Source: Romanomermis culicivorax
Taxonomy: Eukaryota > Nematoda > Enoplea > Mermithida > Mermithidae
Direction: 5' to 3'
Assembly (NCBI GenBank): GCA_963922205.1
Contig: CAWUHX010000231.1
Location: 496,001-560,000 of the forward strand
DNA length: 64,000 bases
Shown: positions 5,460 to 36,425 of the stretch, one piece after another
How positions within the stretch are numbered: position 1 is the stretch's first letter
Layout: each line of letters starts with the position of its first letter
Position numbers and translations under genes: made by a program
Notes under the pieces: model-generated
Databases searched by the model: none
Told to the model about the DNA's origin: nothing
Seen by the model: only the letters and a program-made list of their open reading frames with translations

Positions 5460-5463
5460 AGCG

Positions 5464-16600: not shown

Positions 16601-17212
16601 AATTGCTTCCCTGATTTCGTTTTGCATGCCTTCTACAAAGAGGGGTTTTATGATCATTTCTCGTGCGTCTGTGTTAAAGTTAGGGTAGGCGAGGGTTGCG
16701 AGATGTTCTAGATCAAATAAGAATTCCGTTACTGTTTCTGAACGCTTTTGTTTTCTTTCGCGTAAGAATTGTTGATGTAGCTCATTATCTCTATTGTTTG
16801 GGAAAAATGTCTGTAATGCGACTTTATACTGCTCGTATGTGTGGGGAGGGTTTTCGGAATTGGCTAAACTTTTGAATTTAGCTAACGCGGCTCCTCCTAA
16901 ATGAATTTCTAAACATGCCAACTTTAACTGTACGTCTGTATCTTTCATGCCTTGGAGTGCCATGAATTGTTCTAATCTTTTGTTCCATTCACCAAAATGT
17001 TGGGTCACGCCGCCCGTGAATACTGTAGGTTTCGCGTAGAAATTGTTTGCCATGTTATTACGAATGTTTGCTGTTCTTAGATCGTCTATTAGGGTAGGGT
17101 TTACTGTATTCTGATTCAATTGTGTGCGTAGGGTACGAAAATGTTCTGAAAACAAATCATTTATCTGCTCTCTAACGATTTCTCCTAGATGATCTTGCGT
17201 TTGGTGGGTCAT
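13697..17212 (-). CDS. Gag-Env fusion of an endogenous retroelement, pol absent
   Basis: One uninterrupted minus-strand frame of 1171 aa. Residues about 60-230 look like a retrotransposon Gag capsid domain (VTQHFGEWNKRLEQF; RERKQKRSETVTEFL). Four CCHC zinc knuckles lie at 310-323, 332-345, 349-362 and 372-385. A Pro-rich linker (about 405-580) follows, then a hydrophobic segment at 585-600 acting as an internal signal, a Cys-rich ectodomain starting at FQMCGTSLSG, and a C-terminal membrane anchor at about 1131-1152 with a short basic tail. Protease, RT and integrase are missing. The glycoprotein family is not certain; a class III fusogen-like relation is only a guess. No flanking LTR pair was found by eye. 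Confidence 0.82.
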   Translation of the reverse strand: MTHQTQDHLGEIVREQINDLFSEHFRTLRTQLNQNTVNPTLIDDLRTANIRNNMANNFYAKPTVFTGGVTQHFGEWNKRLEQFMALQGMKDTDVQLKLACLEIHLGGAALAKFKSLANSENPPHTYEQYKVALQTFFPNNRDNELHQQFLRERKQKRSETVTEFLFDLEHLATLAYPNFNTDAREMIIKPLFVEGMQNEIREAIKYRRFATLKEMSDEAAYIEQQILRNELKSNTLPFIPPKPEPIFSLTKNTDQQDLLHQLEQQVKDLQLQIKQKPQPPQQSSYNNFSNNTFSRNNAYRNNTTPRQPTCFQCGQIGHVARNCKSVGTRKSCAICFRNNHSTRDCKSPCIHCSQTGHRSDNCPSKPYSNFQCFICKQRGHTSRYCPNQQSRNIQNCIEYRQPQPLMDIDDPAFYSKLPAITNGPQTSLGTIMPNTHRRSDEYVLDLDVPDWCAMSPPPTPEAEKIEKSPPTIPVGYKIPRKQDTTPPTAPETPSKTGRNLLSLLHGLTPEPYQFRPRQTLLPTPASKQVQTPSHNSNSKLLQNVQISNRPPPQRKIAKRQHQKPQHQTGHNGNIQCPAASTKTFYWPMFCIFLCIIIPTSCSAQFQMCGTSLSGHSVSIPKLVSCMPPSTVDKPVQTFGKIYIPSTKPHITDAYKCSVRKRKICTNTGFFGSKGIVFDQTEMQNLTPHVCKAIVIDKEHNGQKLYETQPGFWSTNNSLSVEYTWCCTDHCTSVTNVIIEIGQIASWNGKSMTGTLGDLGSCKPTSGHCVTADGSIIWNETAFENLCPFEYKNTHPIKLTQTHMIIEELQGAFSVKNTVFSNPNCPEIQDSILTEQGIIVKLDKSTPHRNAFLTPKTNETHTTLYDFDDFEPINAKLNYLADKIQEFEIQNFKNVWNELCRQAQRHLDLVWQILRLDATLGARAFLQRTDIIAEFTGEALTVWPCKQVNASKIFYNHKINQTCYKLLPILVGTELMFSNPGGNDLTPFSQTVDCHHMHVALYKQNNTWVSETGSPHVTNLPLEIVWNQNFSLFHFNTPAIFHDQLATISTNLLFLKQYIYKTHTLENTVKKLVNYTAQMSLNSDTVYNMISGTGQALGNTLSGAGQGIEHVITGTTQSLTDGLNNLLKGPLQIIINLAVITVVIAGVFYSFLALRKYFPSSKHHATNEHAYE

Positions 17213-17623
17213 TCTTGGTTTACGATGGGATTTCTGCTTAAATGCTTCAATTTTTGCTTCACGCTGTATTCGTTTAAATGTATCGCTTAATGCTTCGTTG
17301 GAGGGGGTTTCCAGTTTGCTTAATACGAATACTGTCTTACTGTAGGAAATGATTACTACTGTATTATCTAATGCTTCTAAATGCCCGGATAAGAGTACAC
17401 CTAACTGGGGGCAGGGAGTTCCACTGGTTAACGTAACGGTACGGTCACCAAAATATGTAACGACCAGATTTCTGTGAGGTACTTTACTTGGACCAATCGG
17501 TCGATACGGCGGGGCAAATACGGGGCAGGGCGAACGGTTACAACAAACAACGGGTAATTCGACGGTCGCTTGAACGTCGACAAATAAAACGCGCTTCGAA
17601 TAAAAACGGATGGGGGCCTCGGT
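17213..17623 (-). other. open, protein-like upstream extension of the Gag-Env frame
   Basis: The Gag-Env reading frame stays open for 137 codons upstream of its first ATG, back to a TAA at 17624-17626 (plus coordinates). The encoded stretch looks like real protein, for example NLVVTYFGDRTVTLTSG and NTVVIISYSKTVFVLS, and ends in a basic helix leading into the Gag start. There is no in-frame ATG, so translation would need an upstream exon, frameshifting or a non-AUG start. A different minus-strand frame (17820..17428) starts with ATG (MAEEDGQKLD) and overlaps this region one base out of register. It is a candidate leader, not proven. Confidence 0.5.
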
Positions 17624-19006
17624 TTAAATGCTTTCGAATAGTCGGCCGCTTGCAAATGTATAAAGACGGGGCGAACGCGGATCAAAAAATAAAACGATAC
17701 CAGAATAAGAACCAGAATATAATGATCAAAATCACGCTTTGCTTCTTCTTTTATACGGCGATTTTGGCCACTCCCTGGACGCTGCGGGAGGTCGAGCTTC
17801 TGTCCATCTTCTTCCGCCAATCGTCGTTTCCGGCTACGCTTTTTATGCTTTCTTAGTTACGCCTCTCTAACGCTTTTCTGGTACCGTATGCTTTCTGTGC
17901 TTCACTTGCTTTCTACGGTGGGCTTGGCCACACCTCTGTGCTTCTGTGCATGCTTCCTGTATCGGTTTCTCTGTATACACATGTTTTATGGGGCCGCCGC
18001 TACTGTTACACTTGAGACTACTGTACGGCGGGGCTTCTACATATTTTACTGTGTGCAGGTGTTGTTTACGATTTTTACTGGGGATTACGGTAGCTGTGGA
18101 ATGTGTAGTTTAGTGTAGATTCTAGGGGAACAGCTGCCGTTTGTGCAAATTAATTAGGGCATCTTAATTGGGCTACCGGGGTGTGAACGGATCAAAATAA
18201 AGTACTTCACGTAATTTTGTAGGAATGTTTGGGTGTGAATCCCAGACATCCTTGAGACATAAAATGTGAAAAATAAAATAATATCTAATAAATGTCTATT
18301 ACATACAGTATGCTACATATTTACAGTACTGCTTTAGCAGGTACGTTACAACTGAATGTTTGTGAGCCTACTAAACTAACCCTTAAAATTTTTTGAGTCA
18401 AAAATCCTACAGTAAAACGTTTGTGTAAACGAGTTCGAGGGCAGACTAATTTTTTGTCATGTTTCCATTTACAAGCATTTCATAAAAAACAAACTATATG
18501 TTAATGCGTTAAGAAAGTGTGGAACAACACCTCGAATAGCAAGTTTAAATCGCGATCACAGAATAGAACTTGATTAGAATCATGTGCAGTCCGGCGATGT
18601 TGTTACTGTTCTTTTTCAGATTATTTGTTGTGATTGTAAAAATTTAGCCTTATCCTCGAAATTTGCTTTTGTCCTTATTTTCAAATTTAAATTATCAGGC
18701 AAACCTTGCATCACATAGGTAAATTTGTGTGCATATTTGTAATTAATTTTCAACTTACAAGCAAAACATAGTATGTCAAATTTTCACAAAATTTCACATC
18801 ATAGTACTTTACGCTTTGGCAGATCAAAACTTTTTTATTCAGAAACTGGAAAGCAGATCAAGGACTTTTAATGTACGTCGAGGTCATTGAATAGAATTTT
18901 TTCTAACTAAAAAACCAGTGAAGTCACTGCTTGATGACTTTGTTCTAAAAAAATACATTATACTTTAAAAACTGTCTATAACCATTTTTATCGGAAAGTA
19001 CTGCTA
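17624..19006. other. spacer between retroelement and host gene
   Basis: The left part (to about 18.2 kb) has the higher GC and GC-skewed character of the Gag-Env element and probably contains its promoter or leader. The right part returns to AT-rich host-like DNA with a MITE-like end (TTACAAGCATTTCATAAAAAACAAACTATA near 18470-18500). No direct match to the 13.4-13.7 kb flank, which would mark an LTR pair, was found. Confidence 0.4.
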
Positions 19007-22000
19007 ATGATTTCTAAGTTGACTTTTTCATCACTCATTATTCTGGGCAGCATTTGCATCTTATCAAATTATGCTGCTAGATGGAATAGAGACAGCAGTT
19101 TTTCATCATCGGAGGAAGATGATGACGAAAAGACTTCTGAAAAGTGGATAGGCCATACGCATAAGACGTACAAGAACAGTCGACGCACAGGAAGAAGACC
19201 TAACGGACAAAGTAAGCTTGTTTTCAATTTTTCTGACACTTTAATAAAATATTGTTTAGCGTTGATAGTTGCATGTTTCAATGTACTGTATGAACTTTGC
19301 AGATGAGCACAAGCCGATTTTGCAGAATCTATCACTTTATGACATCCTGATCATTGCTGACAAGTCAGTATCAAATGCAATTCTTTACATGCGCCTATTT
19401 TTAGACAACTCGAAATGTAGTGTGGATACGAGAACGATGGTCTGTTTTTTGAAACTTTTCTAAATCATGAGTGTGGAGAGCGAAACCTGCTTCATTTTTT
19501 GAAATTTTCTGATAAAATGAATTTATGACATGGGACCAAAAATGTGTGAATATACTCAACTAACCTTTGACAATTTTTTTTAATTAAAAGATTCTGTATC
19601 GATTCATCTTTGTTTTAACGGTTTTTTCGATTGTGTCGTTTTTTGTCATTTTTCAATTTAGAAGCGTTTTATAAAAAAATAATATTATTACATAATTGAA
19701 CTTTGGTTTTCTACTAAAAAATTTCAGGTCGCAACGAGGATGGCTCTGTTCAGTGGAAACCGTGGGAGGAGTCCGAATGTTTATGGATCGATCAGATGAG
19801 AAATATACCTGATTCTTGTGGTTTGGATCAGACGGTCAGAAAAATGCCGCATCCGCTGGCTCATGTGAGTTTGTTGAAAAGAAAAAAGTTTTTTTTTCTA
19901 AAGTTTGGTTATATAATGTGCAATCATGTATTGTACTAACCAGCCTGAAATATAAGAATGTTTGAAGGTAGCATAAAGCAGGCCAACAATGTTTTGTGTT
20001 TTTGTGCTCTTTAAAAATTTTTTTGAATCCATCTATATTTAACGACTCATTGTCAAAACTGATAATTACCGGTAATTGTTACCAATGATCTGCTTGCAGT
20101 ATTACGCGTCAAAAGTATTGGAAACCTTCGAAACTATTCAAAGAATTTACAAGAAACGTGGGTTGACTAATCAAGGTTGCGGTCATTGCAGTCGTAAAAT
20201 CGCCTGTCGCCAACGCCTTCATTCGAAAAATTATTTCTTGTAAGTTGTCACGAGTAAACTTATACTGATATTTTTAGCCACGGGTTTTTTCAAAATCTGA
20301 TCCGAGTCATTATACTAAAAAAAATCTTGTAAGCATTGCTTTGCGTCACCATGATCAGCCACAAAGCATATTCTAGTAGAAGTGAAGTCAAATTTTGTAC
20401 ACCTTGAATGCTGAGAAATATTGAACATTTTTTAGGTACATGCTTCTGAATATATCTCGAGAAGATATATCCATTGTATCTATGAAGTGGAAGTATTTCC
20501 AGTGTCTAAAATAGGGCATCTAAAACCACATGCTTAGCCATAAAATGTCCTGATCAACCTCGTAAGACATTGAAACATTTTACTTACCGTTTTTTTCACA
20601 TTTTCTCTCTGGTTCTTCAAAAAATCTTCTTTTCAGCCTTCTGGATGACGTCAAATCTGCTTACAGACTGTTTTTCTCTCAATGCCCCTGGAAAATGAAA
20701 ACGAGAAGCAAATTTTGTATTTTTATAATTTCCTGCTAGAGCTGCAAGTATGAGTGAACTAACTCAATCAATCTAATTTTAGTGTAAAAGAGATCTACAG
20801 TAAAAGTCAGTAACCATTTTAAATTGGCAAGCATAAAAAACAAAACTGCAGTTGCCAATGTGTGGTATAAAAACGGATGATGCTTGAGAGTTGTTTCAGA
20901 GGAATCCAAATACTATCATTTCATGAAGGCTTATTGAGCCATAGCAGTGTTGGTCCAGTCACTGATTCAGCTCGCATGAGATTAGTGATTATTGACTCAT
21001 TCTAAAGCTTCCCATTTTAGCATCCTTTTGATGTCGATTTTTTTGGATAACTTTTTCTTTTCACAGCCCAGCAGAATTGTCTTTTGTTAACGACGATTGC
21101 GACAATGGCGACCCATGCCGCATATCGGCTATAAATGGCACGTGTCCAGCGCCGATGAACCAAAAATATTCCGCCCTCTATAATTTGTTTTCCTCGGTCA
21201 AACGTAAGTGGACCTGTAGGTTTTGAATCTATACATCGACTGGGATTTTTTTTTTGTTAAGCTCCATCCAGAAAGTATCTGCCTATGCCCGGATACAAAT
21301 ATTTCACAGAACTTTGAAGTATATCTTTTTGTCTCAAAGCGCATCAATTACACATCAATCGGTGAATTCAATTGAGACTATCCAAAAGCATGATCTAGAA
21401 TAGCGTATCTGCATTTTCGACGGTTAGGAGTCGTCTGAGTGCGATTGAAATTTATTTCATCATACTCCGATTTACAGTGCTGCATAGAAGGTATTATTCT
21501 TCAAATAGTCATTTAGTTATCGTAGCTTCTTGTGCCGAAATTTCACACAGCATTTACAGTAAGTCCAGTCAGTCCAGTATAGTAACAGTAATTAAGAGTA
21601 ACACTGAACAATTATTAAAATGGTGTCGATTTTTCGCTGATCTATGATGTTCGATCAGTTATACATGCAAGGTGATCCGAAAAAAGGCGACCGCTGCTGA
21701 CTTTCATAACTTTGGAACGGATGAAGCTCTTATAATGCGAATTGCTGCATTAGAATGCCCTGTTTGTTTTTGTTACAAGGCCCAAATTTTATGCTCCTAG
21801 CGTTTATGGTTACTGTACAAACATAAATTCAGTAAAAAAATTCCTTTGTCAAAAAGTAAAAGTCGTGAAATCAAAGTAAAGGTTGTCCTATTGTGAAAAA
21901 AGTTTTGTGAAGCTTTTTACGCAATAATACTTTAAAAATCACCCAGATTTGTAAGTTACGCGTAATTTAAAGTCAGAAACTTGTTGTTTCAATATGGGCA

Positions 22001-25000
22001 AAATTCACCGATCAAGAGCTTTTGTTTTGAAATTGGAAAAAAGCAAAATTAAAACAAAATCAATTCTGTCATTGACCAGATCAAAAAACGATTAAAATTA
22101 TTGGTGAAACAGAAAGTAGGACACACAAAAATGGCTCTCTTGTAGTTTCCAAATTTTTAAAATAAATATTTATCAGCAAGAAAATCGACGCTTCGTATTT
22201 TTGATTCTATTCAGTCAATATTCGAGCAATCTAGCTGAAACTATGCAGTTTTTTGCCTTATTTTTGTCTATCGACGGCAAGAAATCGCACTAAAAAAGCT
22301 TCGCCCGTTTGAAAGTTATGAAAGTCAGTACCGGTCGCCTTTTTTTGGCTCATCTTGTATAATAATATGAATAAATTTTAAATTACAGTCATCTAAACGT
22401 TTTCGGGCTTTTTGCTAAGGATCTGCACGGGATTCTGTCTGCGGCAAAATCATCACGTGACACGCCGGGCCTGAGCTGTCTGGCATCTAAAAGTCCGTTG
22501 GGAGTCTCCATTTCCTATCAATGCGTTAAACTTTATGTTCAACTGTTCAAATTTGTATTGATGAAATGAATTTTTGAATGTATTTCCGAAGTGTTCTGAT
22601 GTTTTCTTTGCGTGAATTCATTCTGCCGAACCACACATTCCTCTGAATCAAAATTCGGAAATTAGTAAACGATAGTCAAATAAACGTTCAATACTGCTTC
22701 GATGTGAACATTTGGGCAGTTTTTCAGCTTCTGGCTTGCTAGTCAGTTGCACTTGTGGCTGTAGGCAAGTTTGTCGTATGATTGTTTTTACATCACTACG
22801 CGGTCATATCAATGATTTTCTGATCTGCGCTTGAAGCATTAGAAAATAAATTTATTATAGTTAGGTTTAACGAAAACAAAAATTTCTGCCATTATAGTAG
22901 TTTGTTGTTGAAAATTGTGTAATCAATAAGATTTTGGCACACGTAAAATCGAAGAGGGTTGAACAGATTGAATAAAATCATTTCAGTAGACTAATATACA
23001 TTACGCCAGAAATATGGTGAACTAACGATTCAAAGGTATGCGGATCCTGCACCTCTAAGTAATGTAAGCCTGACACAAACAATATTTCAGTAGTGTTCTT
23101 GTTCATACTCTCAGCAAGTTCACGTTTTGAGAAATTACTCATCAGCTGAAAGTAGAAGTAACTGCTTTTCCTTACAGAATAAGCACTTACTACAGTTGCA
23201 GTTTGAGTAAAGTTTTAGAAGAACAATTTGAATTCTAGAAAACAAAACAATTCCTTAAAAAGCTAGTGCTATCAAATCACACCATAGGATTCGTTTCCGC
23301 AGTAAACCAAAGATTGACTTTTGGCGTGACTCATTTCGACGAGTCATTGTACTTACTGACAGAATAGGCTTTTACAGGTCAAAAAAATTTTTCTTAATAA
23401 TGCTGAAAGGAAAAGCTTCATATTATTTTCCTGATTCTTCATCAACGCCTCTCATTCTTTCAAATCAATGCAGCGATTTTTCCACATTAGCTTTTTAACG
23501 GAATTTTCTAGAAAGATTGCTCAGGCTTAAATTATACTCCATTCATTTTGAAATAGTCCATGCAGCGAGGTCGCAGCCAAACTTTTATTCAGAATTATGG
23601 AAGGCTTGTTGACTCTATTCAATAAATGTTTGCTTCATGATACAGGGTGTTTGATGATCATACTTTTCAATCTCTAGTAAGGCTGCGTTTGCCTAAACTC
23701 CACCCGCTGCATGGATCATTTCAAAATTAATGGAGCATAGTTGTTATTTTACTAAAATTAGTTGTATAAAAATTCTAAATAGAATATCTACTGTTCATGT
23801 AATACAGAACTTTGTTGGTCAAGTGCTATTTTCTCTGATCTCCCGGTATGTTAGTGTTTAAGGATCTGTGAATTGCAGGGTAAAAATATACTTTTTCTCA
23901 TCTTCCTTAAGACGTTGATGACGAAAACATTGACGATAACAATGACAATAGTGATGAAGATAGAAGCGGTCGCATTTTGGACGACGACCCTTATTCTAGA
24001 TCACCGCCGTTGAAAGGGTAACAAAAAAACAATTTTGGAATATTCTATCGAAATGCAGTTTCTGTGATTTTTTCCAAGCTCGCAGTTTTTAATCAAGCCC
24101 CGACGAAAACTGAACTTTTTCGTCCTACGACTTGGTGGCCATTCTTAATAGTTAATTCAATTTTGATTTTAAATATCTGATTGATTTATCATTCTTGTAT
24201 TCTTCGATAAGAGAACGTAAAGTATATTTTTTATCAAACCCTTCTGACATAAAAAAATAGTCAAAATTAGTACAACGACCGGAATCGATCACATAAAGCT
24301 CAATTCAGAAGTGCAGTCACCGATTGTCGGCAACAAAAATCCTAGGATTTTTTCACTTCTGAATTAGGCTTTCTGCAAACTGCCTATTTATTCTATTCAT
24401 TCCTTATAATCGCCGACTGTCGCCGATTGTCGGCGACAAAAATCCTAGGATTTTTAACTTCTGAATAGTGCTTAATGCTTTTACTAAAGAATTTTGGACT
24501 CGAAAAAGTCTTAAAGGTTACGTGAGTATGACTAAAGATTCCATTCCTATAAGACATTTATGTTTAGAAAAAAAATAGTAATAGCATTAAATAGTGCTTG
24601 CTCTCCAGTCTTTTTATTGAGGAAAATTTCAAGAAAAAAATTGACTATTGTTTCCATGTTTTACTATCCTTTTGTGATAAGGTTGATGGACTCAGGTATT
24701 TCCTACAATCAGATTTTCTCCAATGTTCTATGAATTTTTGCGTTTTTATCGGTAATTCAGTCAGAAAATTCAGATGGAAGGATTTCCTCGCCTGAATGAT
24801 AACTGTTCTCGTTAGTGAACAAAATTCATCGAACAGAATTCGTCGAAATTCCTTATGACTGAACATCTGGGTTATCTCATTAGCCTTGCTCGATGGGGAT
24901 GACGTTTATTTTTCTAAATAGGAAGGTTGGTCAAACTGGAAAGTCGAAGCGTTACAGTTACGATATTCCTTTATGGCGTTGCATCAAGTGAAAATCACAA

Positions 25001-25170: not shown

Positions 25171-27035
25171 CTTAAATTTATGTATAGTTTCCAGTAACGG
25201 TGCATAAACAAATGTACAAAGTTCACTCCGGAATTTTAGGAACAATGTCTCATTAGAAGAGACTTAGAATCTGAACCAGACCATAACCTATGAAAACGCA
25301 CGACATTTCTCCCCGATTCATGTAATTCAAAAATATTTAAAAAGCAAAGATAACATTTTCTGGTTCACCTCATTGGCGTTATGATTGCACCGGATATCGC
25401 TGTTCGCAAATAAGTCTGACTTTTGAGATTCCGATCGATTTTTTAAGGTCCTAAATATATGTACGATTTTTTACCAAGACCCACGACTAACTACAACCAA
25501 AAATACCTTGTTCATCAAACCCCCGAAGTTTTTGATTTGAATGAAGAAAACGCCTTCAGATCTTTGATGTAAGCAGGAGAAAAATAATCTATAATGTTTT
25601 TGGACGAGACCCGGAACTCAAAAGGATGATTTAGCAGAGAAAAACAATTTATATTCTCTCTAGTTGACTGTAGCTGTTAGGAGGACAACTTGAGAAAAAT
25701 ACTGACATAAGATGCAGTTCTTCTATGTGCTCACAGACTTCTGCGGTTTATACTGCATTCCGAGGTTCATTTAGAAATATATGAAATTAGTTTCCGCTTT
25801 TGTACCTCAATTTACGTAGCTGGTTTTCATTTTGAATTTCTCATTGAATCTTGAAAATCTAGATGTCCAAAGATTTATCTGAGCGAGAGAGCAAAAGAAA
25901 TCATTTATGAAACTAGAAAATTGGTTTCATTACGTTCTTATTGACAAGGCCAACAATCAAAAGGCGGGGAAAAGCATGATGCTATTCTATGGTTTTGACT
26001 CATTGTCATGGAAAATTTCAAGCGATGTTGCTTCTACAAAATTTGAAATAGCATTCCAAATCTATCCTACTTTCCTGCCTGTTGGTACTGCATCTATTAT
26101 ACTTTCAGTTATCGCTACAGCATTTCACTGGAAGTATTGACCCAGAATACTACCGTTAAAAGTACCTACAGTGAACAGGAACACTTTCAATGCTCTCGAC
26201 GAAGTTATTTTTCCATAAATTTGTTCCATTTATTTCTTCTCGCATTGCTTTTGTTGTGATCTTCTCATCAATCTTTCAAAAGAGTGAGGCGGAGAACGCA
26301 ATATCCACTTTCTAGAAAGTTCTCAGCTTCGTTTTTCTGCCTCGTTTTTTGCAAATCGCTAATAACCAGCCGACTGTCACCCATGTCCCTGAAGCGCGTG
26401 AGAATTAGAATTTCTTTGTTTATATAATATGATCATTTTTGCCTTTTATTTTTTATGCCATTTCATTCTTGTTGACTTTTCTCAGCTAAAAAGATCCGTC
26501 TTTTCCGCTCTCATTTATGACAGCAGATGTTCATCCGATTCGTTTTTCAGCGCCTTATAAATTCGCTCGTCTCTCTTCCCCAAACAGTATTAGCTCTGTC
26601 TGGGTCAAATTGTTGGATAAATTGAACATTCAAAATCGATTTTAGCTTTTAGAATAATTTTGAAAATTTTGGAACTCGAATTTTTCCTGTTTGAACGACT
26701 TGAAATCGTTTTGTTTTATCAAATCGAAGTGGAAAAGTAAGGCAGTTGATCCTCGGATCACCTTACGAGGGTACGTTTTTTAGTGAAAATTCTGAAACTC
26801 ATTTTATAGTGCATTCGATAGCTTAAAGTGAGCTTAATAATGTTACAGTAGTTATTATTCCCCACTAGACGTTATATACACTAAATTCCCATGAATGTTC
26901 TTGATAATAACAAGTCCGCCAATACCTGATTTCGACCAAGTGTAACAAATGAAAATTGATTCAGTCGAAAAGTCTTTCTGCAAACTGTAGTATGAAATAT
27001 TGTTATCATCGTCACACCTAAAATATTCTTCGAGA
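25171..27035. other. intergenic DNA before the LTR retrotransposon
   Basis: 1.9 kb of AT-rich sequence. Small open frames (for example near 25907-26140) lack splice context, domain features or conserved motifs. Nothing further could be supported. The last bases GAGA (27032-27035) are the left copy of the retrotransposon's target duplication. Confidence 0.4.
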
Positions 27036-27675
27036 TGTGGGAGCGCCACCAATCAATCAATAATGATTGCCGTTGAGCAACCTACAGTAAACGGCGATGC
27101 CTTCACCGTCGCGCTTATGTCAGGCAAACCTACGTTATCCAATCCTACTGTAGACATCGTGCCAAGATTCTTCGCTTTACGTTACCTAACTTTTTTATTT
27201 TTATACGACTATGCTTACTAAGATTATGATCTAACATTATGTGAAACTATGACGTCAATACTTAGTTTTTATGTCTTTTTTTATGTCTTTTTCTTTATAT
27301 ATATATGTCGGTTTTGTATGTAAAAATCACTTCGATATTTCCCTAATAAATTTAGCTTACCTGCTTTCTTCTCTGCTCTTTGACTCTTTGATATCGTCGT
27401 AGGGTCGCTGGTTAAACGTCGTTCGTTCCGTCCGGCTTTGCGACCATTGGAAGCTGGAAGAAACATAATTTCGTTATGAGACTAAGATTTTCCTTTTAAA
27501 ATTACCTTGGCGTTTTCCTAATCATCGCCATTGCCATCCATCCTTTGACGTTTTCATTGACGTTTCTAAAGAAAATAGAATAACTCAAAAACGTTTAGTA
27601 TTTAGTCCGATCTGCAGGTTATTCAGCTACAGTAACCTGTATTTACCATTGACCTAAAAATTGACAAACCTTACA
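27036..27675 (+). repeat. 5' LTR (640 bp)
   Basis: Starts TGTGGGAGCG and ends CTTACA. It matches the right LTR throughout, with small indels (6 bp near 27060, the TATGTCTTTTT/TA-run region near 27270-27310, and 7-8 bp near 27380) and scattered substitutions. Confidence 0.93.
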
Positions 27676-27677
27676 AG

Positions 27678-27694
27678 TGGCGATTCGTGGCAGG
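27678..27694 (+). other. candidate primer-binding site
   Basis: Two bases after the 5' LTR comes TGGCGATTCGTGGCAGG. The TGG start complements a tRNA CCA end, at the standard position for minus-strand priming. The tRNA species was not identified; the implied discriminator base is G. Confidence 0.6.
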
Positions 27695-27993
27695 ACGTCG
27701 GCTACAATTTTCGGATTCGATTTGACGTTGGAGAAGTTTGAAAATAAAGAAGAAATAAAGAAGCACGAAGGCCAACGATTTTTGACAACTTACTTAACAT
27801 TTTCAGAACTCGACGTTGACGTTTTTTTCGAACTTGATGATTTTTTCTTGAAGAACGGCTGGAGAAGAAAATTTAGAAGAAGATTTACGAATTTTGGCAA
27901 ATCAAGAAGATCATGCAAGAAAATCGTTTTCGGCTTAGGAATAATGCGAGAGATTTTTAGATTCAATCGAACGGTCCCCAAGAGTCCAACAGG

Positions 27994-30051
27994 ATGGGAG
28001 GTCGCCCAAACTGCGCGCTAAATACCAACTTTAACCACGGCCGCCTGTCAGGAAAGTCCTCAGATGGTACCGTTTCTTGTTTTAGATGTGGTAGAAGTGG
28101 GCATTATTCTTCTACTTGCCCCATGCTCGAACAAAATCAAGATTCCAGATTTTCGAGTTCCCTGCGTAGCACATGGCGTGGTGGACCGCCCCGAGTGCAA
28201 ATGCCAGCCCGAGGCATTTCGAACCCTAGGAGTCCAGGAGATGCCCTTTCTGGAACCCGAGGAGTCAATAGTCAGCTTTGTCTTGCCGAGGCTAATGGGC
28301 CCAACGTGTCAGTATTTAATCCTGACACCATCGCAGAACAGTCCGATCCCTGGAATTGCGATGATTTCGATCTGTTGATAGAAAATTCCAATGTGAGGCC
28401 TCAGGCACATGTTTTTATGGCCCGATATAATGAAGAATTTTATTTTGGAACCGGACACTCCACATTGGTGAGTAGTGGGACAGGATCTGAAGAAATTAGC
28501 GATAATCCCACTACTGCCTCCCATGGGTATACTGGCAATTATTTAGAAAATGAAGCCCCAGAACATTTAGAAAATGGTTATTTAGAAAATGGTTCAGATG
28601 AACCCTCTGATTTTGATGAAACTTCTGATTTCGACTATTATGAAGATAGACGGCGCCATCAGCGATTTGAAAATTCTGGGCAGGTCAAATCAGCTAATTT
28701 TTTCATGAATACGGCTCAGACTGGAGGTTTTAATTCCGACCGTCCCTCTGGAAGCCGCCCCGTGGGTGTAGTTTATCCTCGAATTTTGAATGGGCCCGCT
28801 GCAGCTAGTATTTGTAATTTATGTAATATTTCGAATTGTATGCATATGCAAGGATTTGGAAGCCAGTCACGACGAGGAGTGATCGCTAGACAAGGACCCT
28901 GGGAATTTACGACAGAAGGATGGATCAATGAGTCAGCAATGTGGATCGTTTGGAGGCCTGAAGTCACCTCCCCAGAAGATCCCACGCGACATCAGTCAAC
29001 TCAAACTGACTCAAGAATGGATCCAAGAAGGCTAGAACATTTACAATTTCAATTTAGAGCAGAAGCAGTTCAAAGAAGCAGAAATCGTAACAGAAGAAGA
29101 ATTCCTCAAAACAATTTTCAACGAATTTTTAGAAATTTAGTCTCACTTACTTCTTCCTATTTTTTGTTCGCCGCTATATTATTGCTTTCTTTTCTCGTCG
29201 GCTATTCGTTCCGCGACCCTTTCTTCCAATGTGGCGTTTCGCGAGGCAGTCGTGCCTTGATGGTCCCGAAAACGATGCGATATCGACCTCCGCCACTGAT
29301 TATAGCTGAAAAACGTGAAATAAAATTGCGCATTTGGTCCACCAAGGGACAGTCGAATCAAATTATAGCCATTCGATGCATTTTACGAAACCGAACCGTT
29401 TATACGAACACAGGAGTTCTATTTCAAAAAACAGAAAATGGAAAAAAACCTATCGTTTATGCTAGTAGAAGTTTAATGAAAGTGGAAAGAAACTATGTAA
29501 TCAGGGAACAGGAAGCTTTGGCCATAGTCTGGGCAGTAAAATATTTTCGTCATCATTTGTATCAGCAGCACGTCACCGTTTTTACGAATCATTCAGTCCT
29601 ACAAAGTATCTTTTCAAAACCAAACCCTTCCAGTCATATAGCTAGATGGAGACTAGCATTGCAAGAATTTCAAGAACTCAACATTAAACATCGCGCCGGA
29701 AAAGTCAACAAAAATGCAGACGCTCTTTCAAGAAATCCAGTATGTGGAGAAAACGGCAAGAAAGGCGTAAAATTTCATATAAACGCGATTACACGCTCAC
29801 AAACTTGTAAAAACAGGCCAAAAGACTCAATCTCCATTATAGTAGCAGCACGTTCCAAAAAAACATCGACTATAGCAAGAACTAGTCTAGATGAAACTCA
29901 AACTACACGCTCAAAAATGTCTGATAACTTATTTTCAACTCAAGAAGACGCAAATTTTGAAGAATTTCCTAGTATAGAAAGAACTACTTTCAAAAAAATT
30001 CGAGCTATAGTTACAGAAAGGGAAGAAAAGAGTTCAACGCGAGCGATATAA
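27994..30051 (+). pseudogene. chimeric gag knuckle / Env-like N-terminus / RNase H frame
   Basis: A 685-codon open frame. One CCHC knuckle lies at residues 29-42 (CFRCGRSGHYSSTC), followed by an acidic low-complexity region. A hydrophobic segment at about 389-403 leads into a block at 410-474 beginning FFQCGVSRGS and ending TNTG. This block aligns with the Env start of the 13.7-kb Gag-Env gene. It passes directly into a Ty3/gypsy RNase H domain (about 476-582: KKPIVYASRSL, EALAIVWAVKYFRHHL, AGKVNKNADALSRNP). The first RNase H acidic residue is missing and the later TDH position reads TNH, so RNase H is probably dead. Capsid, protease and RT are absent. A gag remnant may lie at 27677-28021 in another frame. 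Confidence 0.8.
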
Positions 30052-31310
30052 ACAACTTTCGCAAAGCACAAAGAAGTGACCAATTTTGTAGTCAACTGCT
30101 AGCTTATTTACAGTTTGATTACCTGCCTAAAGATCTTAAGCAAGCTGAGAAAATTGTTTTACTAGTATCTCAATTTACGATAAAAGACGAAATTTTATAT
30201 TTTTTGGGCGATGCAGACGTAAACGAATTGAAATTAGAAGTTCCAGTTTCGAAAAAAGAAGAAATTTTAGAAGCCTGTCATGATGACGTTTTTTCCGGAC
30301 ACTTTGGTTTTACGAAAACATTAGCAAAAATTCGCTTACGCTACCATTGGTCTACAGTATACCGCGACGTATGAGAACACTGCTTAAAATGTATCAGTTG
30401 CAGTATGAGAAAAACATCTACAAAAAGAAATCACGCTGCTCTTATGCCTATACTAGTTACAGGTCCATTTGACAGAGTGGCTATAGATATTTTAGGTCCT
30501 TTGCCTATGAGCGAAAATGGAAATAAATACGTCATTGTGTTCAGCAAATACTTAACGAAGTATGTGACGGCAGTAGCTCTACCAGAAACTACGACAGGAA
30601 AAGTTGCAGAAATAGTGCTACATTTTGGTGCGCCATTAACATTACTTTCAGATAGAGGAAAAAATTTCTTATCTGATCTAATGTTACGCCTTAGTGAAAA
30701 ATGTGCAACAAGAGAAACAAACACAAGTCCCTACCATCCACAAACAAACGGACTAGTGGAGAAATTCAATAAAACTTTGGCTACTATTATCTCAATGTAC
30801 ATCAATAAAAAACATAACGATTGGGATTCCTATTTGCCCTACCCGTGTTTTGCATACAACACGGCCACACAAAAGTCAACAAAGTACTCACCATTTCTTC
30901 TTCTTTTTGGCCGCCGCCCAAATTTTCCGATCGACGTCACTCTTCATTTTTCGCTGGCTTTCTATCGAATCAACATTGACTTCGGCGACGACGTCCAACG
31001 ACTTTCGTCCAACACCTGGCAATCTGCCAAAGAAAATATAAAAATTGCACAACATGCTCAGATGATTGCATACGATAAAAAAGAACATGGAGAAGAACTC
31101 ACAGTAGGAGAAGGAATTTTTAAGTATAGTCCCGTGGTGAAGCCCAAACACTCACCTAAATCTACTTTTCCATGGATAGGACTCTACGTCATTATTAAAA
31201 AGAAGCATTCGATGAACTTATTGCGATTAAAAGAAAATTCGAGCCACCCGCACGAAAAGATACATTCCGATGTATTAAAGAAGAAAAAGATGGACGAACT
31301 TTGTCCATGA
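30052..31310 (+). pseudogene. pol C-terminus: HHCC zinc finger and DDE integrase, broken
   Basis: The frame picks up one base out of register from the preceding ORF. It contains the H-H-C-C integrase zinc finger (CHDDVFSGHFGFTKTLAKIR ... HCLKCISC) interrupted by TGA at 30372-30374. The integrase core follows: AIDILGPLP, LLSDRGKNF and HPQTNGLVEKFN supply the D, D and E, though the segment between the first and second Asp is shorter than usual, suggesting a small in-frame deletion. The C-terminal part runs to the stop at 31308-31310. The frameshift, stop and shortened core argue that the enzyme is not functional. It is typical of Ty3/gypsy pol otherwise. Confidence 0.85.
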
Positions 31311-31611
31311 CGAAAGCTTTGATCGTATCATCGGAACAGCCTCCAGAACATTCATTTGCATGATTCGTCCATGTGAAAAAAAAGAAAAAAAAGAAAAAAT
31401 GCGAAAATGCTTGTATAAAATGTGTAATATTTTCCTGCATAAGTCATTAAGAAGGCTTATTTTTACTCCTTCCCTTAACGTGCGCTCCGCTATTTAATTA
31501 TTTTTATATCTATTCGGTTAAATATTTTTTATATATATTCTCTTCTTGGTAAATTGTTATTTTATGTACTCATTTTTACTCTGTTCTTAACTCATTTTTA
31601 CATCTAAAGAC

Positions 31612-33285
31612 ATGGCTTTCACGAAGATCACGACCACGATAGCAGCTGATCAATGGCGTCTTTGTCAAATTTCGCCGCCCTTGATCAAACACGAGGCCAT
31701 CGTTGCATTTGGTCAAGAACTCGGGCGATTGCCGTTAAATGGTCGATACGTCGTATGTACGACGGTAGAAGAAAGTCAACCAATGTGTGACTTTTTGGCC
31801 AACGACCCGCGTCACCCTGGCGTTTATGGGCTCGACGCCGAATTCATGAACTATCACATGGATTGGGTCGATTGGGACAAGAAGGAGGCCGGCCCGCTAG
31901 CGAATTTGGCCAAGAAGAAACTCGATATCGCTTTACACGGCCAGCGATATTCCAAAGGGCCTTTCGCCGTCGTCATCCAAATCTGCCACGCCGACGGACA
32001 TACAATTGTGTTCGACCTCTTGGAGATGGGAGTCGTTCCCATTTCCTTGATCAACCTCCTTAAAAACGCCCGCGGAATTATCGGTTTTGCGGCCAACTGC
32101 GATTTGACCGCCATGGCCAACGTCGACATACGATTCGCGGACATCAAAATTCGGGCTGATACCAATCAGATACATCTGTTTCTGAAAAGTAATCGCAGCC
32201 TCGATTATATCCGGGATATGAACCCCGAATTATACAAACGTTTAATCGATAGGACGGCTGATTTCTATCTCGCTGGGAATAGTTTGGGGGCGATAGTTCA
32301 ACATCTATTTGGTGTTCACCTTGACAAAGGATTTCAAGGTCAGGGATTGGCGTGGGCCAAACGTCCCTTACCTTCCAACACCCTAGAATACATCGCCTTG
32401 GATGCCATCACCCACTTCGACGCCTACTATAGCTTGAACGAATTTTACACTCTTTTCAACAAAGTTAAAACTCTGACGTCGAGAGAACGAATAATGATGT
32501 CGAAACGAGCCGCAAAAAACGAGCCGTTATCGCTCGCAATTTTTGATTTTCCCCTACGTGAAGTAAAAATAAGATCTATGATTTTAGATAGGTTAGGCAA
32601 AGAACCCTTGCCACGAAATTCGACCAGGGAGAGTTCGATTGAAGACGAAGAAGAAGGAGAGAAATCTGAAGAAGAGACAGAAATTTCAGGAAACGATCTA
32701 TTTGTTTCCCTGAAATCAGAAGAACGAAAAGAAAAAGTTTTCTATACCATAAAAATAGTCCTAAAAGAAGCTATTAAATGCACCCTTAGCTTGATGAATA
32801 AGAAGGATAAACAAAGCGGTATAAAAATTCCACCTAATCTTTTACAGGAAAAACAGGTACCGACGTCTTCGAACGAGTCGACTAAGAGAACTAGGGAGGA
32901 AAAACTGTCGGCCAAATCGTCGAAACCTCAACCGAAAAAGCCGAAAGTGGAAGCCGTTTTAAACCCGACGCAGGCCAAGAACATTTGCGCGGTCGAAGAA
33001 AATCAAAGATTCGTTGAAATTGCGTTCGAAACGACGAACATTTTCAAACCGAAGCCGCCGCCGCCCGACTGTCATTTTTCGGCATTCAATTATTTTCGCC
33101 GCCGCTTCGTCACACCAATTGCCAACCGCGAAGCAATCGATCTCCGGGCCCAGGCAGAACGAGAGGCTTATTGCCACTTGGACGATAATTTGGCTGCCTT
33201 CATCGTTTGTTTCATGCCGCCTTACCATACTGAAATGCCGCCCGCTGCCAAAGAATTTGCCGAACATCGCAGCGTTCATCTATGA
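31612..33285 (+). CDS. DEDDy 3'-5' exonuclease (RNase D/WRN/MUT-7-like) carried by the LTR element
   Basis: A 557-aa intronless ORF between integrase and 3' LTR. Residues about 55-285 form a DEDDy exonuclease domain. Exo I is GLDAEF (D75, E77), Exo II GFAANCDLTAM (D164) and Exo III YIALDAITHFDAYY (Y260, D264), with the preceding SLGAIVQHLFGVHLDKG helix typical of RNase D/WRN/EXD/MUT-7 relatives. All four metal-binding acids are present. Then come an acidic linker (about 343-358), a Lys-rich NLS-like region (about 424-446) and a conserved-looking C-terminal segment. The same frame continues 44 codons past the TGA (33283-33285) to 33420 in protein-like sequence. The likely activity is hydrolytic 3'-5' trimming of RNA or DNA; its purpose is unknown. 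Confidence 0.85.
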   Translation: MAFTKITTTIAADQWRLCQISPPLIKHEAIVAFGQELGRLPLNGRYVVCTTVEESQPMCDFLANDPRHPGVYGLDAEFMNYHMDWVDWDKKEAGPLANLAKKKLDIALHGQRYSKGPFAVVIQICHADGHTIVFDLLEMGVVPISLINLLKNARGIIGFAANCDLTAMANVDIRFADIKIRADTNQIHLFLKSNRSLDYIRDMNPELYKRLIDRTADFYLAGNSLGAIVQHLFGVHLDKGFQGQGLAWAKRPLPSNTLEYIALDAITHFDAYYSLNEFYTLFNKVKTLTSRERIMMSKRAAKNEPLSLAIFDFPLREVKIRSMILDRLGKEPLPRNSTRESSIEDEEEGEKSEEETEISGNDLFVSLKSEERKEKVFYTIKIVLKEAIKCTLSLMNKKDKQSGIKIPPNLLQEKQVPTSSNESTKRTREEKLSAKSSKPQPKKPKVEAVLNPTQAKNICAVEENQRFVEIAFETTNIFKPKPPPPDCHFSAFNYFRRRFVTPIANREAIDLRAQAEREAYCHLDDNLAAFIVCFMPPYHTEMPPAAKEFAEHRSVHL

Positions 33286-33994
33286 AATCAATTACGACGG
33301 GACCCCCCGCTACTACCTGAACAAATCGAAGCCCTAGTGGCCAAATTTTGTAATATTCTTACCGAATATTATACGAGCCGCATCGTTCGACCCGCCACCG
33401 ACCGTCAACTTCGTCCATAAATCGTCGTCTTCAAATTTTTGTTGTCGTCAATAATTTTTCGTCGTTACTTTGTCCAATATTTTTCGTCGAATTCGTCCTT
33501 AACTCATCGTCGTAATCATTTCATCCTCGAATAATTTATCGTTGCCGTTTTGGTCTCCGTTTATCGTCCAATTATCTTCACATTCGTCGCCTATCCCGTC
33601 AAAATTTTGTCGATTTTTCGTTCAATATTCGTATTGTGTATATATATGAAAAAAAAGAAAAACCACTGAAAAACCCATCTTAATCTTTTAGTTATTCACA
33701 AATTTGTAAAATTTAAATTCATGTGAAATGGGAACATTATAAAATGGAACAGGAAGAATCATAAAGAAAAACCAGAACGTAAAGTTGGAGAAAATGGAAG
33801 ACACAAAATAAAAAGAGCGAAGAAAATTATAATGAAGAAAATCTGAGGATTGGAGAAAACGAAAGGAGAAAATTTTTATTTACCGTCATAAAAACACTTA
33901 CCCGAACAATCCGCCATCGTTTCCATCGCTGATTCGTCGTCCAAATCTTGTAAAACATAGGCTGGGGACAGCCTTTTCGCCAGCGCCGGAAGAA
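33286..33994 (+). other. non-coding 3' region of the LTR element
   Basis: After the 44-codon open continuation (to 33420) the sequence is rich in TCGTC-type motifs (33360-33620), then A/G-rich (33650-33880). No ORF of note. This is probably the 3' untranslated region of the exonuclease transcript plus the region where a polypurine tract would lie. Confidence 0.5.
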
Positions 33995-34616
33995 TGTGGG
34001 AGCGCCACCAATCAATCAATTGCCATTGAGCAACCTACAGTAAACGGCGATGCCTCCACCATCGCGCTTATGTCAGGCAAACCTACGTTATCCAATCCTA
34101 CTGTAGACATCGTGCCAAGATTCTTCGCTTTACGTCACCTAACTTTTTTATTTTTATACGACTACGCTTACTAAGATTATGATCTAACATTATGTGAAAC
34201 TATGACGTCAATACTTAGTTTTTATGTCTTTTTCTTTATATATATATATATATATGTCCGTTTTGTATGTAAAAATCACTTCGATATTTCCCTAATAAAT
34301 TTAGCTTACCTGCTTTCTTCTCTGCTCTTTGATATCATCGTAGGGTCGCTGGTTAAACGTCGTTCATTCCGTCTGGCTTTGCGACCATTGGAAGCTGGAA
34401 GAAACATAATTTCATTACGAGACTAAGATTTTCCTTTTAAAATTACGTTGGCGTTTTCCTAATCATCGCTGTTGCCGTCCATTCTTTGACGTTTTCGTTG
34501 ACGTTTCTAAAGAAAATAGAATAACTCAAAAACGTTTAGTATTTAGTCCGATCTGCAGGTTATTCAGCTACAGTAACCTGTATTTACCTTTGACCTAAAA
34601 ATTGACAAACCTTACA
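33995..34616 (+). repeat. 3' LTR (622 bp)
   Basis: Second LTR copy with TGTGGGAGCG start and CTTACA end, followed by GAGA. It has a longer TATATA run (about 34238-34255) than the 5' LTR and lacks a few short insertions present there. Confidence 0.93.
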
Positions 34617-35282
34617 GAGAAATATAAGGTTGAATCACAGCAAAATTCGAGGAACTAAATTTATATCAGGATGAGGTCGGCTCATAAGTGTCTGAAGCAG
34701 TTTTTATATCTATACTCTGTCAAATGATTTTCCGCGTGTTTATATCATATTGTAGGCTACTTTTGTGCAAATTTTAATGTAAATAAGGCCACTAAGAAAA
34801 ACGACATTAATGTAACATTACTTATATAGTTTCGAGCTATTGGATTCACTATAAGTTGTCTGACATTGGAAACGCTCCCTGAATAGGGATCATCTATAAT
34901 ATTAAAATTCAAGTGTCCGTTTGTGTGTATAGTACAACACTATAAGTATATAGCATGTTACAAGATATACCTTTTTAGAAGAAAGTGAGTGACTCAGAAC
35001 TATATATTGCAATGTATAAACATGCTGTACATAAAATATGCCTACAGTATGACACAATATGTTATAAAAAAGCTTAATGTTGTCGTTGTGTGGGTCAGTA
35101 GGTTTATTCTCTACTGGCGGCCCACACGTACAATGAAGTGAATGAGGTATCGGTTATGCTGGCCGATTTGCATAATTGATTCGTAAACAATACGACGATA
35201 AACAAAGACGAAATGAATAGTTGACCAAAGGCCCAACTATTTATACAGGAAAAACGACGCACGTGCGCGCGCAAACACATCA
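34617..35282. other. intergenic DNA right of the LTR element
   Basis: AT-rich DNA. A segment at about 34660-34870 has diverged similarity to about 38340-38460 (ATTGTAAATA-GGCC, AGTGTAACATTACT), suggesting an interspersed repeat. No gene recognised. Confidence 0.4.
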
Positions 35283-36425
35283 GTTATAACATAGCCCTAT
35301 GTTATAACATGGTCCTACGTTATAACATACAAAAAATTTTTTTTCGACATGTTATAACGTATTGACCTGTTTTAACATTGTCCTATGCTATAACATCGTC
35401 CTATGTTATAACATAAATTTATTTTTTCATTTTCCGACATGTTATAATATGGTTTTATGTTAGAACATAAGCCTAACTTATAGCATACAGAAAGTTTTTT
35501 TTTTATTCTTCGACATAATGACATGTTATAACATAGTTCCGTATTATAACATAGGCCTATGTTATAAGATCCTATTCTTTTCATTTTTCGACATGTTATA
35601 GCATACTGACATGTTATAACATACTGAAATGTTATAACATACAAATTTTTTTTATTTGTCGACATTATGACATGTTATAACATAGTTCCGTGTTATAAAA
35701 TTGGCCGATGTTATAAGATACAATTTTTTTATTTTTCGACACGTTATAGCATACTGACATGTTATAACATACTCCTATATTATAACATGGTCCTATGTTA
35801 TAACATACAAAATTCTTTTTTATTTTTGGATATGTCATAACATATTGACATGTTATAACATAGTCCCATGTTATAACATGGGCCTATGTTATGATATACA
35901 CAATTTTTTTTCATTTTTCGGCATGTCGTTTCACATAACATGTCCAATGATATAACATGTTTGCAAATCATAACATATACCACATGAAGGATGTGCATTT
36001 TATAAGATACCCCATGTTATGACATGTCACAAGGCACAAATTATAGCTGCCTGTTAAAAGAAATACCTTTTGAACTTAGTGTCATATACAGCAATGTATA
36101 AACATGCTGTACATTAAATATACCTACAGTATCACACTGTATGTTATAACATGACCCTGTGTTATAACAATGACCTAAGTCATAGCATAAAAAAGATTTT
36201 TTTGAAAAAATTTTCTATATCGAAGCCACATAGTCTTATGCTATAGCAAAACCTTATGTTATAACATAAAAAATTTTTTGCAAGAAACTTATATGTGTTG
36301 TAACACTAGATATGTTATAATGTAGGTTATGCTATAACATAGGATATGTTATATCATGGGATATGTTATAACATGAGATATATTTTAGCGGGGGATATGT
36401 TATAACACGGGATACGTTATAATAT
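35283..36425. repeat. array of the palindrome ATGTTATAACAT
   Basis: About 1.1 kb packed with perfect or one-off copies of the 12-bp palindrome ATGTTATAACAT, usually flanked as CCTATGTTATAACATA or GACATGTTATAACATA. Between about 35340 and 35930 a higher-order unit of roughly 70-90 bp recurs: T-rich tract, CGACATGTTATAACATA, CTGACATGTTATAACAT, CCTATGTTATAACAT. Copies become looser after 36000. It is non-coding in all frames. Confidence 0.88.

What the first reader, a model, noticed from the sequence alone, without database searches (positions are those of the whole stretch)
31612..33285. An LTR retrotransposon carrying an intact DEDDy 3'-5' exonuclease in the env position
Seen: a 557-codon intronless ORF between integrase and the 3' LTR, with D75-x-E77, D164 and Y260-x3-D264 of the RNase D/WRN/MUT-7 exonuclease fold, an NLS-like Lys-rich region and its own C-terminal segment. 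Known: LTR elements encode RNase H but not, to my knowledge, a separate RNase D/WRN-type exonuclease; in C. elegans the DEDDy exonuclease MUT-7 acts in small-RNA silencing of transposons. Inference: the element captured a host exonuclease, which might trim small RNAs or element RNA, counter silencing, or process reverse-transcription ends. The ORF stayed open over 1.67 kb while pol in the same copy broke.
Basis: partly seen in the sequence, partly recalled or inferred. Interest (0 to 1): 0.92.

Follow-up and report, generated by a model that had tools for sequence, protein, structure and literature searches.

The report
Exonuclease kept by crippled nematode retroelements
In what appears to be a mosquito-parasitic worm, a family of virus-like jumping genes carries its own RNA/DNA-trimming enzyme, and a recent set of stripped-down copies that lack reverse transcriptase keeps this enzyme almost unchanged, which suggests that it matters for how those copies spread.

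Summary
Window 27036-34616 is an LTR element (GAGA target duplication) with a 557-codon ORF, DEDDy residues intact, between integrase and 3' LTR. It is no one-off: the window's assembly (359,112,060 bases; inferred Romanomermis culicivorax) gave 83 match rows; of 30 loci read, 30 have integrase upstream and 29 the LTR downstream. New here: (1) 22 of 29 other loci, and the window, are RT-less; the one long form read has Env between gag and protease, and RT. (2) In ten RT-less copies the exonuclease domain has dN/dS 0.044 (0.025-0.070), integrase 0.70 (0.48-1.15); in the five of these ten whose LTR pairs were read the LTRs differ by at most 0.7%, so constraint acted while RT-less copies multiplied. 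(3) Of 44 close RT copies, 34 have no exonuclease match downstream (lower-bound searches); in the two inspected the domain is missing between remnants. Best reading: a helper-dependent element keeping a DEDDy exonuclease that acts on its own RNA or cDNA. Substrate and activity are untested; recombination could mimic part of the signal; both structure models were unusable.

The parts
27032..27035 (.). 5' target-site duplication GAGA
   Evidence: read directly; matches 34617-34620
27036..27675 (+). 5' LTR (TG...CA)
   Evidence: 598 of 640 columns identical to the 3' LTR; 21 substitutions in 620 aligned bases
27678..27695 (+). primer-binding-site-like stretch, 2 bases after the LTR
   Evidence: the same stretch follows the 5' LTR in L043 and L040, one base differs in L036, altered in L032, absent in L034 (five copies looked at); the tRNA was not identified
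27961..30051 (+). ORF1 of the RT-less form: CCHC knuckle, linker, hydrophobic segment with Env N-terminal remnant, partial RNase H
   Evidence: Pfam zf-CCHC 0.00073 (just below its cut-off) and RT_RNaseH 8.2e-27; 26% identity over 103 columns to the Gag-Env ORF at 13700-17623, E=2e-6
29400..29440 (+). approximate junction of the shared deletion (rest of Env, protease, RT and start of RNase H missing)
   Evidence: RNase H starts at profile position 19 in the window and L032 but 2 in L043; junction at RNase H residue 43/44 in 19 of 29 other loci; no RT motif found between the LTRs
29973..30371 (+). integrase zinc-binding region, shifted out of frame from ORF1
   Evidence: Pfam Integrase_H2C2 3.2e-13; frame segments
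30405..31310 (+). integrase core ORF
   Evidence: Pfam rve 8.9e-5, below its cut-off; D28, D83, E119 present
31567..31611 (+). T-rich tract ending in AG just before the ORF3 ATG; possible splice acceptor for a subgenomic mRNA (inferred)
   Evidence: kept in 29 of 30 copies read, not L011
31612..32520 (+). DEDDy 3'-5' exonuclease domain (D75, E77, D164, Y260, D264)
   Evidence: Pfam PF01612 3.8e-8; profile match to WRN exonuclease 1.8e-5; dN/dS 0.044 in ten group-B RT-less copies, 0.158 in eleven group-A RT-less copies
32521..32847 (+). A-rich acidic linker with low GC3
   Evidence: GC3 0.30 against 0.56 and 0.55 on either side; dN/dS 0.25-0.27
32848..33285 (+). C-terminal segment of unknown fold, cut by TGA at 33283-33285
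   Evidence: no Pfam match in the ORF beyond PF01612; dN/dS 0.21-0.24; relatives continue
33286..33417 (+). former end of ORF3 after the stop
   Evidence: same frame continues 44 codons and resembles the end of P0001
33995..34616 (+). 3' LTR
   Evidence: LTR hit in 29 of 30 loci
34617..34620 (.). 3' target-site duplication GAGA

Best explanation
The ORF is ORF3 of a Ty3/gypsy-type, Env-bearing LTR retroelement family of (inferred) R. culicivorax and encodes a DEDDy 3'-5' exonuclease plus a C-terminal segment. The window copy belongs to RT-less derivatives that arose by a deletion from the Env region into RNase H. SHOWN: anatomy, multi-copy association, intact catalytic residues in most copies read, strong purifying selection on the exonuclease domain within young RT-less copies, and remnants in place of the exonuclease in two copies with long RT-containing open frames. 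INFERRED: the RT-less elements move with RT, protease and Env supplied in trans by such relatives; ORF3 is translated from a spliced subgenomic mRNA; and because it stays constrained in copies that cannot move alone, the exonuclease acts preferentially in cis, on the RNA, RNP or cDNA of the element that encodes it, for example trimming 3' ends of its RNA or nascent cDNA, or degrading small RNAs bound to its transcripts. Which substrate it uses is open.
For: Integrase upstream in 30 of 30 and LTR downstream in 29 of 30 loci. Of the 29 other loci: junction into RNase H residue 43/44 in 19, a similar one in L013, ORF1 without an RNase H hit in L006 and L021, RT in 3, a piece of RT in 1, no hit in 3. 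Long form L043 has Monjiviricetes_fusion 5.6e-20, RVT_1 2.8e-33, RNase H and integrase, then the exonuclease. dN/dS in ten B copies with the junction seen: exonuclease 1-303 0.044 (0.025-0.070), integrase 0.701 (0.475-1.145); eleven A copies without RT: 0.158 (0.123-0.202), integrase 0.496 in ten of them. Four B copies with ORF1 open: exonuclease 0.02, ORF1 0.55. Changes private to one of eleven B copies: exonuclease 44 synonymous and 16 nonsynonymous, integrase 22 and 60, Fisher p 3.8e-8. LTR pairs of the five of those ten B copies read on both sides: 0/616, 4/599, 1/627, 2/628, 3/627; TSDs match in 8 of 12 pairs tested. Five catalytic residues in 26 of 30 copies, B 12 of 13. B stands apart from the RT-containing loci in the integrase, exonuclease and LTR trees. 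In the two exo-less RT copies inspected the exonuclease domain is missing while parts of its C-terminal segment and the 3' spacer remain.
Against: Synonymous distance in the exonuclease (0.18 in B) exceeds that of the integrase (0.06), and third positions exceed the non-coding parts. GC-rich third positions and CpG transitions explain part (41 of 93 variable third positions in CpG context), but older exonuclease alleles exchanged by recombination are not excluded. The B node has support 0.93 in the exonuclease and LTR trees but only 0.085 in the integrase tree, and RT-containing loci nest among RT-less ones. The B integrase keeps D, D and E in 12 of 12 copies with no private stop, and ORF1 is open in 4 of 5 of the young B copies read, so ORF1 is not simply dead. 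Loci were ranked by similarity to the window's exonuclease, which favours intact ones. Only two exo-less RT copies were inspected, their LTRs were not dated and their mobility is not shown. In group A, exonuclease frames do decay. No expression or enzyme data. Both structure models are unusable.
Confidence: 0.55

Rival explanations
1. Recombination rival: the exonuclease is selected only in RT-containing elements and is copied into the RT-less ones by template switching, so its low dN/dS says nothing about a need in the RT-less form.
For: Synonymous distances in the exonuclease are larger than divergence of neighbouring regions; exonuclease copies with RT exist (L010, L011, L015; 10 of 44 RT copies of at least 90% identity have an exonuclease match downstream, my reading). 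The RT-containing loci sit among RT-less ones in the trees, so some exchange is likely.
Against: The B group stands apart from the RT-containing loci in integrase, exonuclease and LTR trees alike; changes private to single B copies still show dN/dS 0.11; synonymous differences are spread evenly over codons 1-300; the two RT copies with long frames that were inspected lack the domain.
Confidence: 0.2
2. Counter-silencing: the exonuclease trims or destroys small RNAs or their templates and so protects the element from RNA-based silencing.
For: DEDDy enzymes act in small-RNA pathways; MUT-7 in C. elegans is the known case (mentioned in PMC5408684, passages read). The nearest solved structures by profile include mut-7 homologues.
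Against: WRN scores better than the mut-7 homologues; no targeting partner, localisation or small-RNA data; a freely diffusing suppressor would not by itself explain constraint in each RT-less copy.
Confidence: 0.2
3. End-processing: the exonuclease trims the 3' ends of reverse-transcription products or of the genomic RNA before integration.
For: Proposed for bdelloid DEDDy ORF3 (RNA 3' ends) and for the DEDDy domain of some Dada DNA transposons (cleaved DNA 3' ends) by their authors (passages). Cis-acting by nature if packaged with the RNA.
Against: Two close RT-containing copies with long open frames lack the domain, so the basic cycle may run without it.
Confidence: 0.25
4. Host use: the worm benefits from the exonuclease, for instance against viruses or other transposons, and host selection keeps it.
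For: Strong constraint.
Against: Constraint is spread over many young, separately inserted copies rather than one fixed locus; many group-A copies carry stops.
Confidence: 0.07
5. One-off insertion of a host gene into a dead element.
For: None found.
Against: 29 further loci with the same integrase-ORF3 order, 28 of them with the LTR.
Confidence: 0.01

Closest known systems
DEDDy ORF3 of bdelloid rotifer LTR retrotransposons (Juno1, Juno2, Vesta2, Vesta5; also Athena/Terminon elements), PMC5408684
   Same: DEDDy exonuclease as ORF3 of an LTR retroelement; no clear cellular parent
   Different: Another phylum; here the catalytic set reads DEDD (there DEED, passage); here the exonuclease is under strong purifying selection in an RT-less form, whereas the bdelloid paper calls intragenomic ORF3 variation mostly neutral (judged from env-like and GDSL clones, section 3.6 read); sequence relationship not tested
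TelKA2n, non-autonomous bdelloid family that keeps an env-like ORF (PMC5408684)
   Different: Keeps an env-like ORF, not an exonuclease; the section read reports mostly neutral variation
Dada DNA transposons with a DEDDy exonuclease domain (PMC3706591, passages)
   Same: Mobile element carrying a DEDDy exonuclease with all four acidic residues
   Different: DNA transposon; domain inside the transposase
Anakin (Pao elements with a chuvirus-type glycoprotein) of mosquitoes, PMC7642597 (passages)
   Same: LTR element with a glycoprotein from a related virus group (kinship of the two glycoproteins not tested here)
   Different: BEL-Pao; no exonuclease mentioned in the passages read; here Env lies between gag and protease
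WRN exonuclease / MUT-7 family
   Same: DEDDy family by profile
   Different: The Pfam match starts at residue 112, 35 residues after motif I, so an insertion there is likely (inferred); extra linker and C-terminal segment; no orthology shown

Membership tests
Ty3/gypsy LTR retrotransposon | LTRs with TG...CA ends and short target duplication | tested here: met
   TSDs match in 8 of 12 other pairs
Ty3/gypsy LTR retrotransposon | order protease-RT-RNase H-integrase | tested here: met
   long form L043 (its protease matches are weak and below the Pfam cut-offs); the window copy lacks protease and RT
Ty3/gypsy LTR retrotransposon | RT phylogenetic position | not tested
   only the Pfam RVT_1 match
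DEDDy exonuclease (PF01612) | profile match above curated cut-off | tested here: met
   33.8 against 23.6 bits; 15 of 16 members of A6 match at E up to 0.1
DEDDy exonuclease (PF01612) | D-x-E, D and Y-x3-D catalytic residues | tested here: met
   window and 25 of 29 other loci
DEDDy exonuclease (PF01612) | RNase H-like exonuclease fold | tested here: inconclusive
   models with mean pLDDT 40.0 and 39.4; no fold search was run on them
DEDDy exonuclease (PF01612) | 3'-5' exonuclease activity | not testable with these tools
   no wet work
Bdelloid DEDDy ORF3 group | ORF after integrase, before 3' LTR | tested here: met
Bdelloid DEDDy ORF3 group | groups with bdelloid DEDDy ORFs in a tree | not tested
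   no bdelloid sequence among the 28 hits; no tree made
Envelope-type ORF3 (env position) | Env encoded downstream of pol | tested here: not met
   Env-like ORF lies between gag and protease in L043, the one long form read whole
MUT-7 / WRN orthologue | best match and tree position with MUT-7 or WRN | tested here: inconclusive
   WRN 1.8e-5, mut-7 homologue 0.0031; the best stretch covers residues 222-276 only; no tree

The most novel reading that the evidence does not exclude
A retroelement whose functions have split over two complementary genomes in one host: one lineage keeps gag-Env-protease-RT-integrase in one long open frame and has lost the exonuclease, the other has lost Env, protease and RT and is selected to keep the exonuclease, so that each may profit from the other, or the RT-less one uses the exonuclease to compete with its helper. 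(That the long frames include Env was not checked.)
Probability: 0.25. Interest if true: 0.85.

Novelty: new variant of a known kind. Interest (0 to 1): 0.62.

Why it matters
Extra ORFs of LTR elements are usually treated as env remnants or neutral cargo. Here a DEDDy exonuclease is the most strongly constrained part measured in elements that have lost reverse transcriptase, in a group with near-identical LTR pairs. That makes an open question testable: what an exonuclease does for a retroelement, and whether it acts in cis. It also offers a possible helper and parasite pair of retroelements in one genome.

Tried and rejected
One-off host gene: rejected. First report of a DEDDy ORF in LTR elements: rejected by PMC5408684. 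Protein-only test of selection from UniRef gene models: weak, catalytic columns hardly stand out, replaced by codon analysis. Neutral simulation of frame survival: only indicative, since gene models are chosen for open frames. Structure prediction: two jobs, both below use, so no fold search was run. IMG/VR scan with the ORF: no relative confirmed. LTR pair for the Gag-Env ORF at 13.7-17.6 kb: none found in 10,000-20,500. Terminal inverted repeats of 40 or more bases in 1-27000: only one pair, at 21665-22360. A first guess that the RT-less integrase is dead was softened. A zinc-finger comparison failed because the search string was not found, and an LTR-start comparison gave no result for most copies for the same reason. 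The Env search of the whole genome and a second exonuclease search with a B-type query did not complete. Absence from print rests on the listings only; no statement outside that library. Papers: PMC5408684 abstract, passages and section 3.6; PMC3706591, PMC6431247, PMC5718144, PMC7642597 and PMC10879605 passages; all others listings only.

Full report
What is in the window. An LTR element occupies 27036-34616. Its LTRs start TG and end CA, align with 21 substitutions and 4 indels over 620 aligned bases (K2P 0.035), and are flanked by GAGA on both sides. Between integrase (30405-31310) and the 3' LTR lies an ORF of 557 codons; the longest open run in 500 shuffles of that stretch was 183 codons. 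Pfam finds DNA_pol_A_exo1 at 3.8e-8, 33.8 bits against a cut-off of 23.6. A profile of the family matches the Werner exonuclease best among solved structures (1.8e-5), then mut-7 homologues (0.0031) and Rrp6 (0.033); the best-scoring WRN stretch covers residues 222-276. Two AlphaFold jobs gave mean pLDDT 40.0 and 39.4, so the fold is not shown.

Where it comes from. All 28 proteins found at E<=10, among 5373 candidates scored from the large protein collection, are Romanomermis culicivorax gene models. The window's assembly has 359,112,060 bases in 595 contigs, and a published long-read assembly of R. culicivorax is given as 359 Mb (PMC10879605, passages).

It is a family, not an accident. The whole-genome search gave 83 match rows, a lower bound because 78 of 503 candidates were scored. 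I read 30 loci, the best-scoring ones, the window's own included. The integrase is upstream on the same strand in 30 of 30 and the LTR downstream in 29 of 30 (not found in L002; partial in L009 and L013). I sorted them into a group A with the window (16) and a group B (13), with L026 in neither. Codon analysis used 30 exonuclease sequences and 27 of 30 integrase sequences, those with one hit longer than 800 bases; the region distances left out L002, L013 and L026.

RT-less derivatives. Upstream stretches were read for all 29 other loci, 12 as 9.9-kb pieces, 16 as 1.4-kb pieces and one from L031. Nineteen show one and the same junction, from the Env N-terminal region into RNase H residue 43/44; L013 has a similar one; L006 and L021 give ORF1 hits but no RNase H hit; L010, L011 and L015 contain RT; L005 a piece of RT; L009, L016 and L027 gave no hit (the L006 to L021 statement also rests). 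The window shows the same truncated RNase H and no RT motif. The long form L043 (upstream of L010) has, in order, a region like ORF1, a Monjiviricetes-type fusion glycoprotein (5.6e-20), a weak protease match, RT (2.8e-33), RNase H, integrase and then the exonuclease. In this copy, the only long form read whole, Env lies between gag and protease, and the exonuclease does not stand in for it. The same Env type, fused to Gag in one open frame without pol, is found at window 13700-17623.

Selection. In ten B copies whose junction was seen, dN/dS is 0.044 (bootstrap 0.025-0.070) for residues 1-303, 0.248 for 304-412, 0.244 for the C-terminal segment and 0.701 (0.475-1.145) for integrase. In eleven A copies without RT (the window, L002, L003, L004, L006, L007, L008, L012, L013, L014, L021) it is 0.158, 0.274, 0.212 and, in ten of them, 0.496 for integrase. 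L016, L017 and L027 of B and the RT-bearing or unclear A copies were left out of these two sets. In four B copies with ORF1 open, ORF1 has 0.55 and the exonuclease domain 0.02. Changes private to one of eleven B copies are 44 synonymous and 16 nonsynonymous in the domain, 22 and 60 in integrase (Fisher p 3.8e-8). Five of the ten B copies had both LTRs read; these pairs differ by 0, 4, 1, 2 and 3 bases in about 600, so little time has passed since insertion and the constraint acted while the RT-less lineage was replicating. L017, an older copy on the B side, differs by 19 in 594; the A pairs and L010 by 1.6-3.2%, the window by 3.4%. This contrast is the core of the finding.

Points against a simple story. 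Synonymous divergence in the exonuclease is about three times that of integrase in B, and third positions are above the non-coding parts. Third positions are GC-rich, 77 of 93 variable ones are pure transitions and 41 of 93 lie in CpG context, which explains part of it. Trees of integrase, exonuclease and LTR all put B apart from the RT-containing loci; L027 falls with B in two of three; the B node is well supported for exonuclease and LTR (0.93) but not for integrase (0.085), and RT-containing loci nest among RT-less ones, so some recombination is likely. The integrase triad letters are kept in 12 of 12 B copies, and ORF1 is open in 4 of the 5 young B copies read. Loci were ranked by exonuclease similarity, so the share of intact frames (11 of 13 B with first stop at codon 602-604) is biased upward; in group A many frames carry stops.

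The exo-less relatives. An RT search gave 147 matches. Of the 44 at 90% identity or more, 10 have an exonuclease match within about 3 kb downstream on the same strand do not (my reading of the lists; one search scored 78 of 503 candidates, all 119 of its first look). Seven of the 34 have stop-free frames of more than 2,300 codons around RT. In the two inspected (C100, C134) the place of ORF3 holds an N-terminal scrap, C-terminal remnants and the 3' spacer, and the exonuclease domain is missing. So the lineage with the long pol frames appears to have lost the exonuclease, while the RT-less one keeps it. The primer-binding stretch is the same in the window, L040 and L043 and differs by one base in L036, as one would expect for shared machinery; it is altered in L032 and absent in L034. 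Whether the exo-less copies are the helpers is inferred.

How it may work. I take it that the RT-less element borrows RT, protease and Env and expresses ORF3 itself, perhaps from a spliced mRNA (a T-rich tract ending in AG precedes the ATG in 29 of 30 copies; PMC5408684 states that ORF3s of LTR elements typically are separate units expressed from spliced messages, passage). Constraint in copies that cannot move alone suggests action in cis. End trimming of RNA or cDNA and removal of silencing small RNAs are both possible; nothing here decides.

Known and new. DEDDy ORF3s in LTR elements have been known since 2017 in bdelloid rotifers, where the authors left open whether they bring an advantage and called intragenomic ORF3 variation mostly neutral, judged from env-like and GDSL clones. 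New are the host phylum, the intact DEDD set, the strong selection, its persistence in an RT-less form and the exo-less relatives. Within the held library the listings of ten searches showed no report of this in nematodes.

Noticed in passing
window 13700-17623 (-): One open frame of 1308 codons joins a Gag (CCHC knuckles, gag match just below cut-off) to a Monjiviricetes-type viral fusion glycoprotein (Pfam 2e-18), without pol and without a detectable LTR pair.
   Followed up: partly
L043:3597-4775: Env-like glycoprotein between gag and protease in a Ty3/gypsy-type element; close RT copies have stop-free frames up to 2665 codons, so gag, Env and pol may form one polyprotein. The genome-wide Env search did not complete.
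   Followed up: partly
window 2432-10498 (+): Maverick/Polinton-like genes: A32-like ATPase, integrase with chromodomain, adenain-like protease.
   Followed up: no
G000:C394, C130, C1:2071669, C207, C407, C1:200628, C576, C4:1269874, C453: PF01612 matches that are not in the exonuclease list: host genes or further exonuclease ORFs.
   Followed up: no
G000:C158:182264-194830: Three exonuclease fragments exactly 5778 bases apart, with equal scores: a tandem array.
   Followed up: no
protein P0002 (R. culicivorax UniRef): Gene model fusing an RNase_T (TREX-like) domain to parts of the exonuclease ORF; model artefact or chimera.
   Followed up: no
window 35283-36282: Diverged repeats around GTTATAACATA, 16 copies of a 61-base unit.
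   Followed up: no
window 32563-32847: In-frame stretch starting GT and ending in TTTTACAG with low GC3, possibly a facultative intron; several R. culicivorax gene models resume just after this acceptor.
   Followed up: partly
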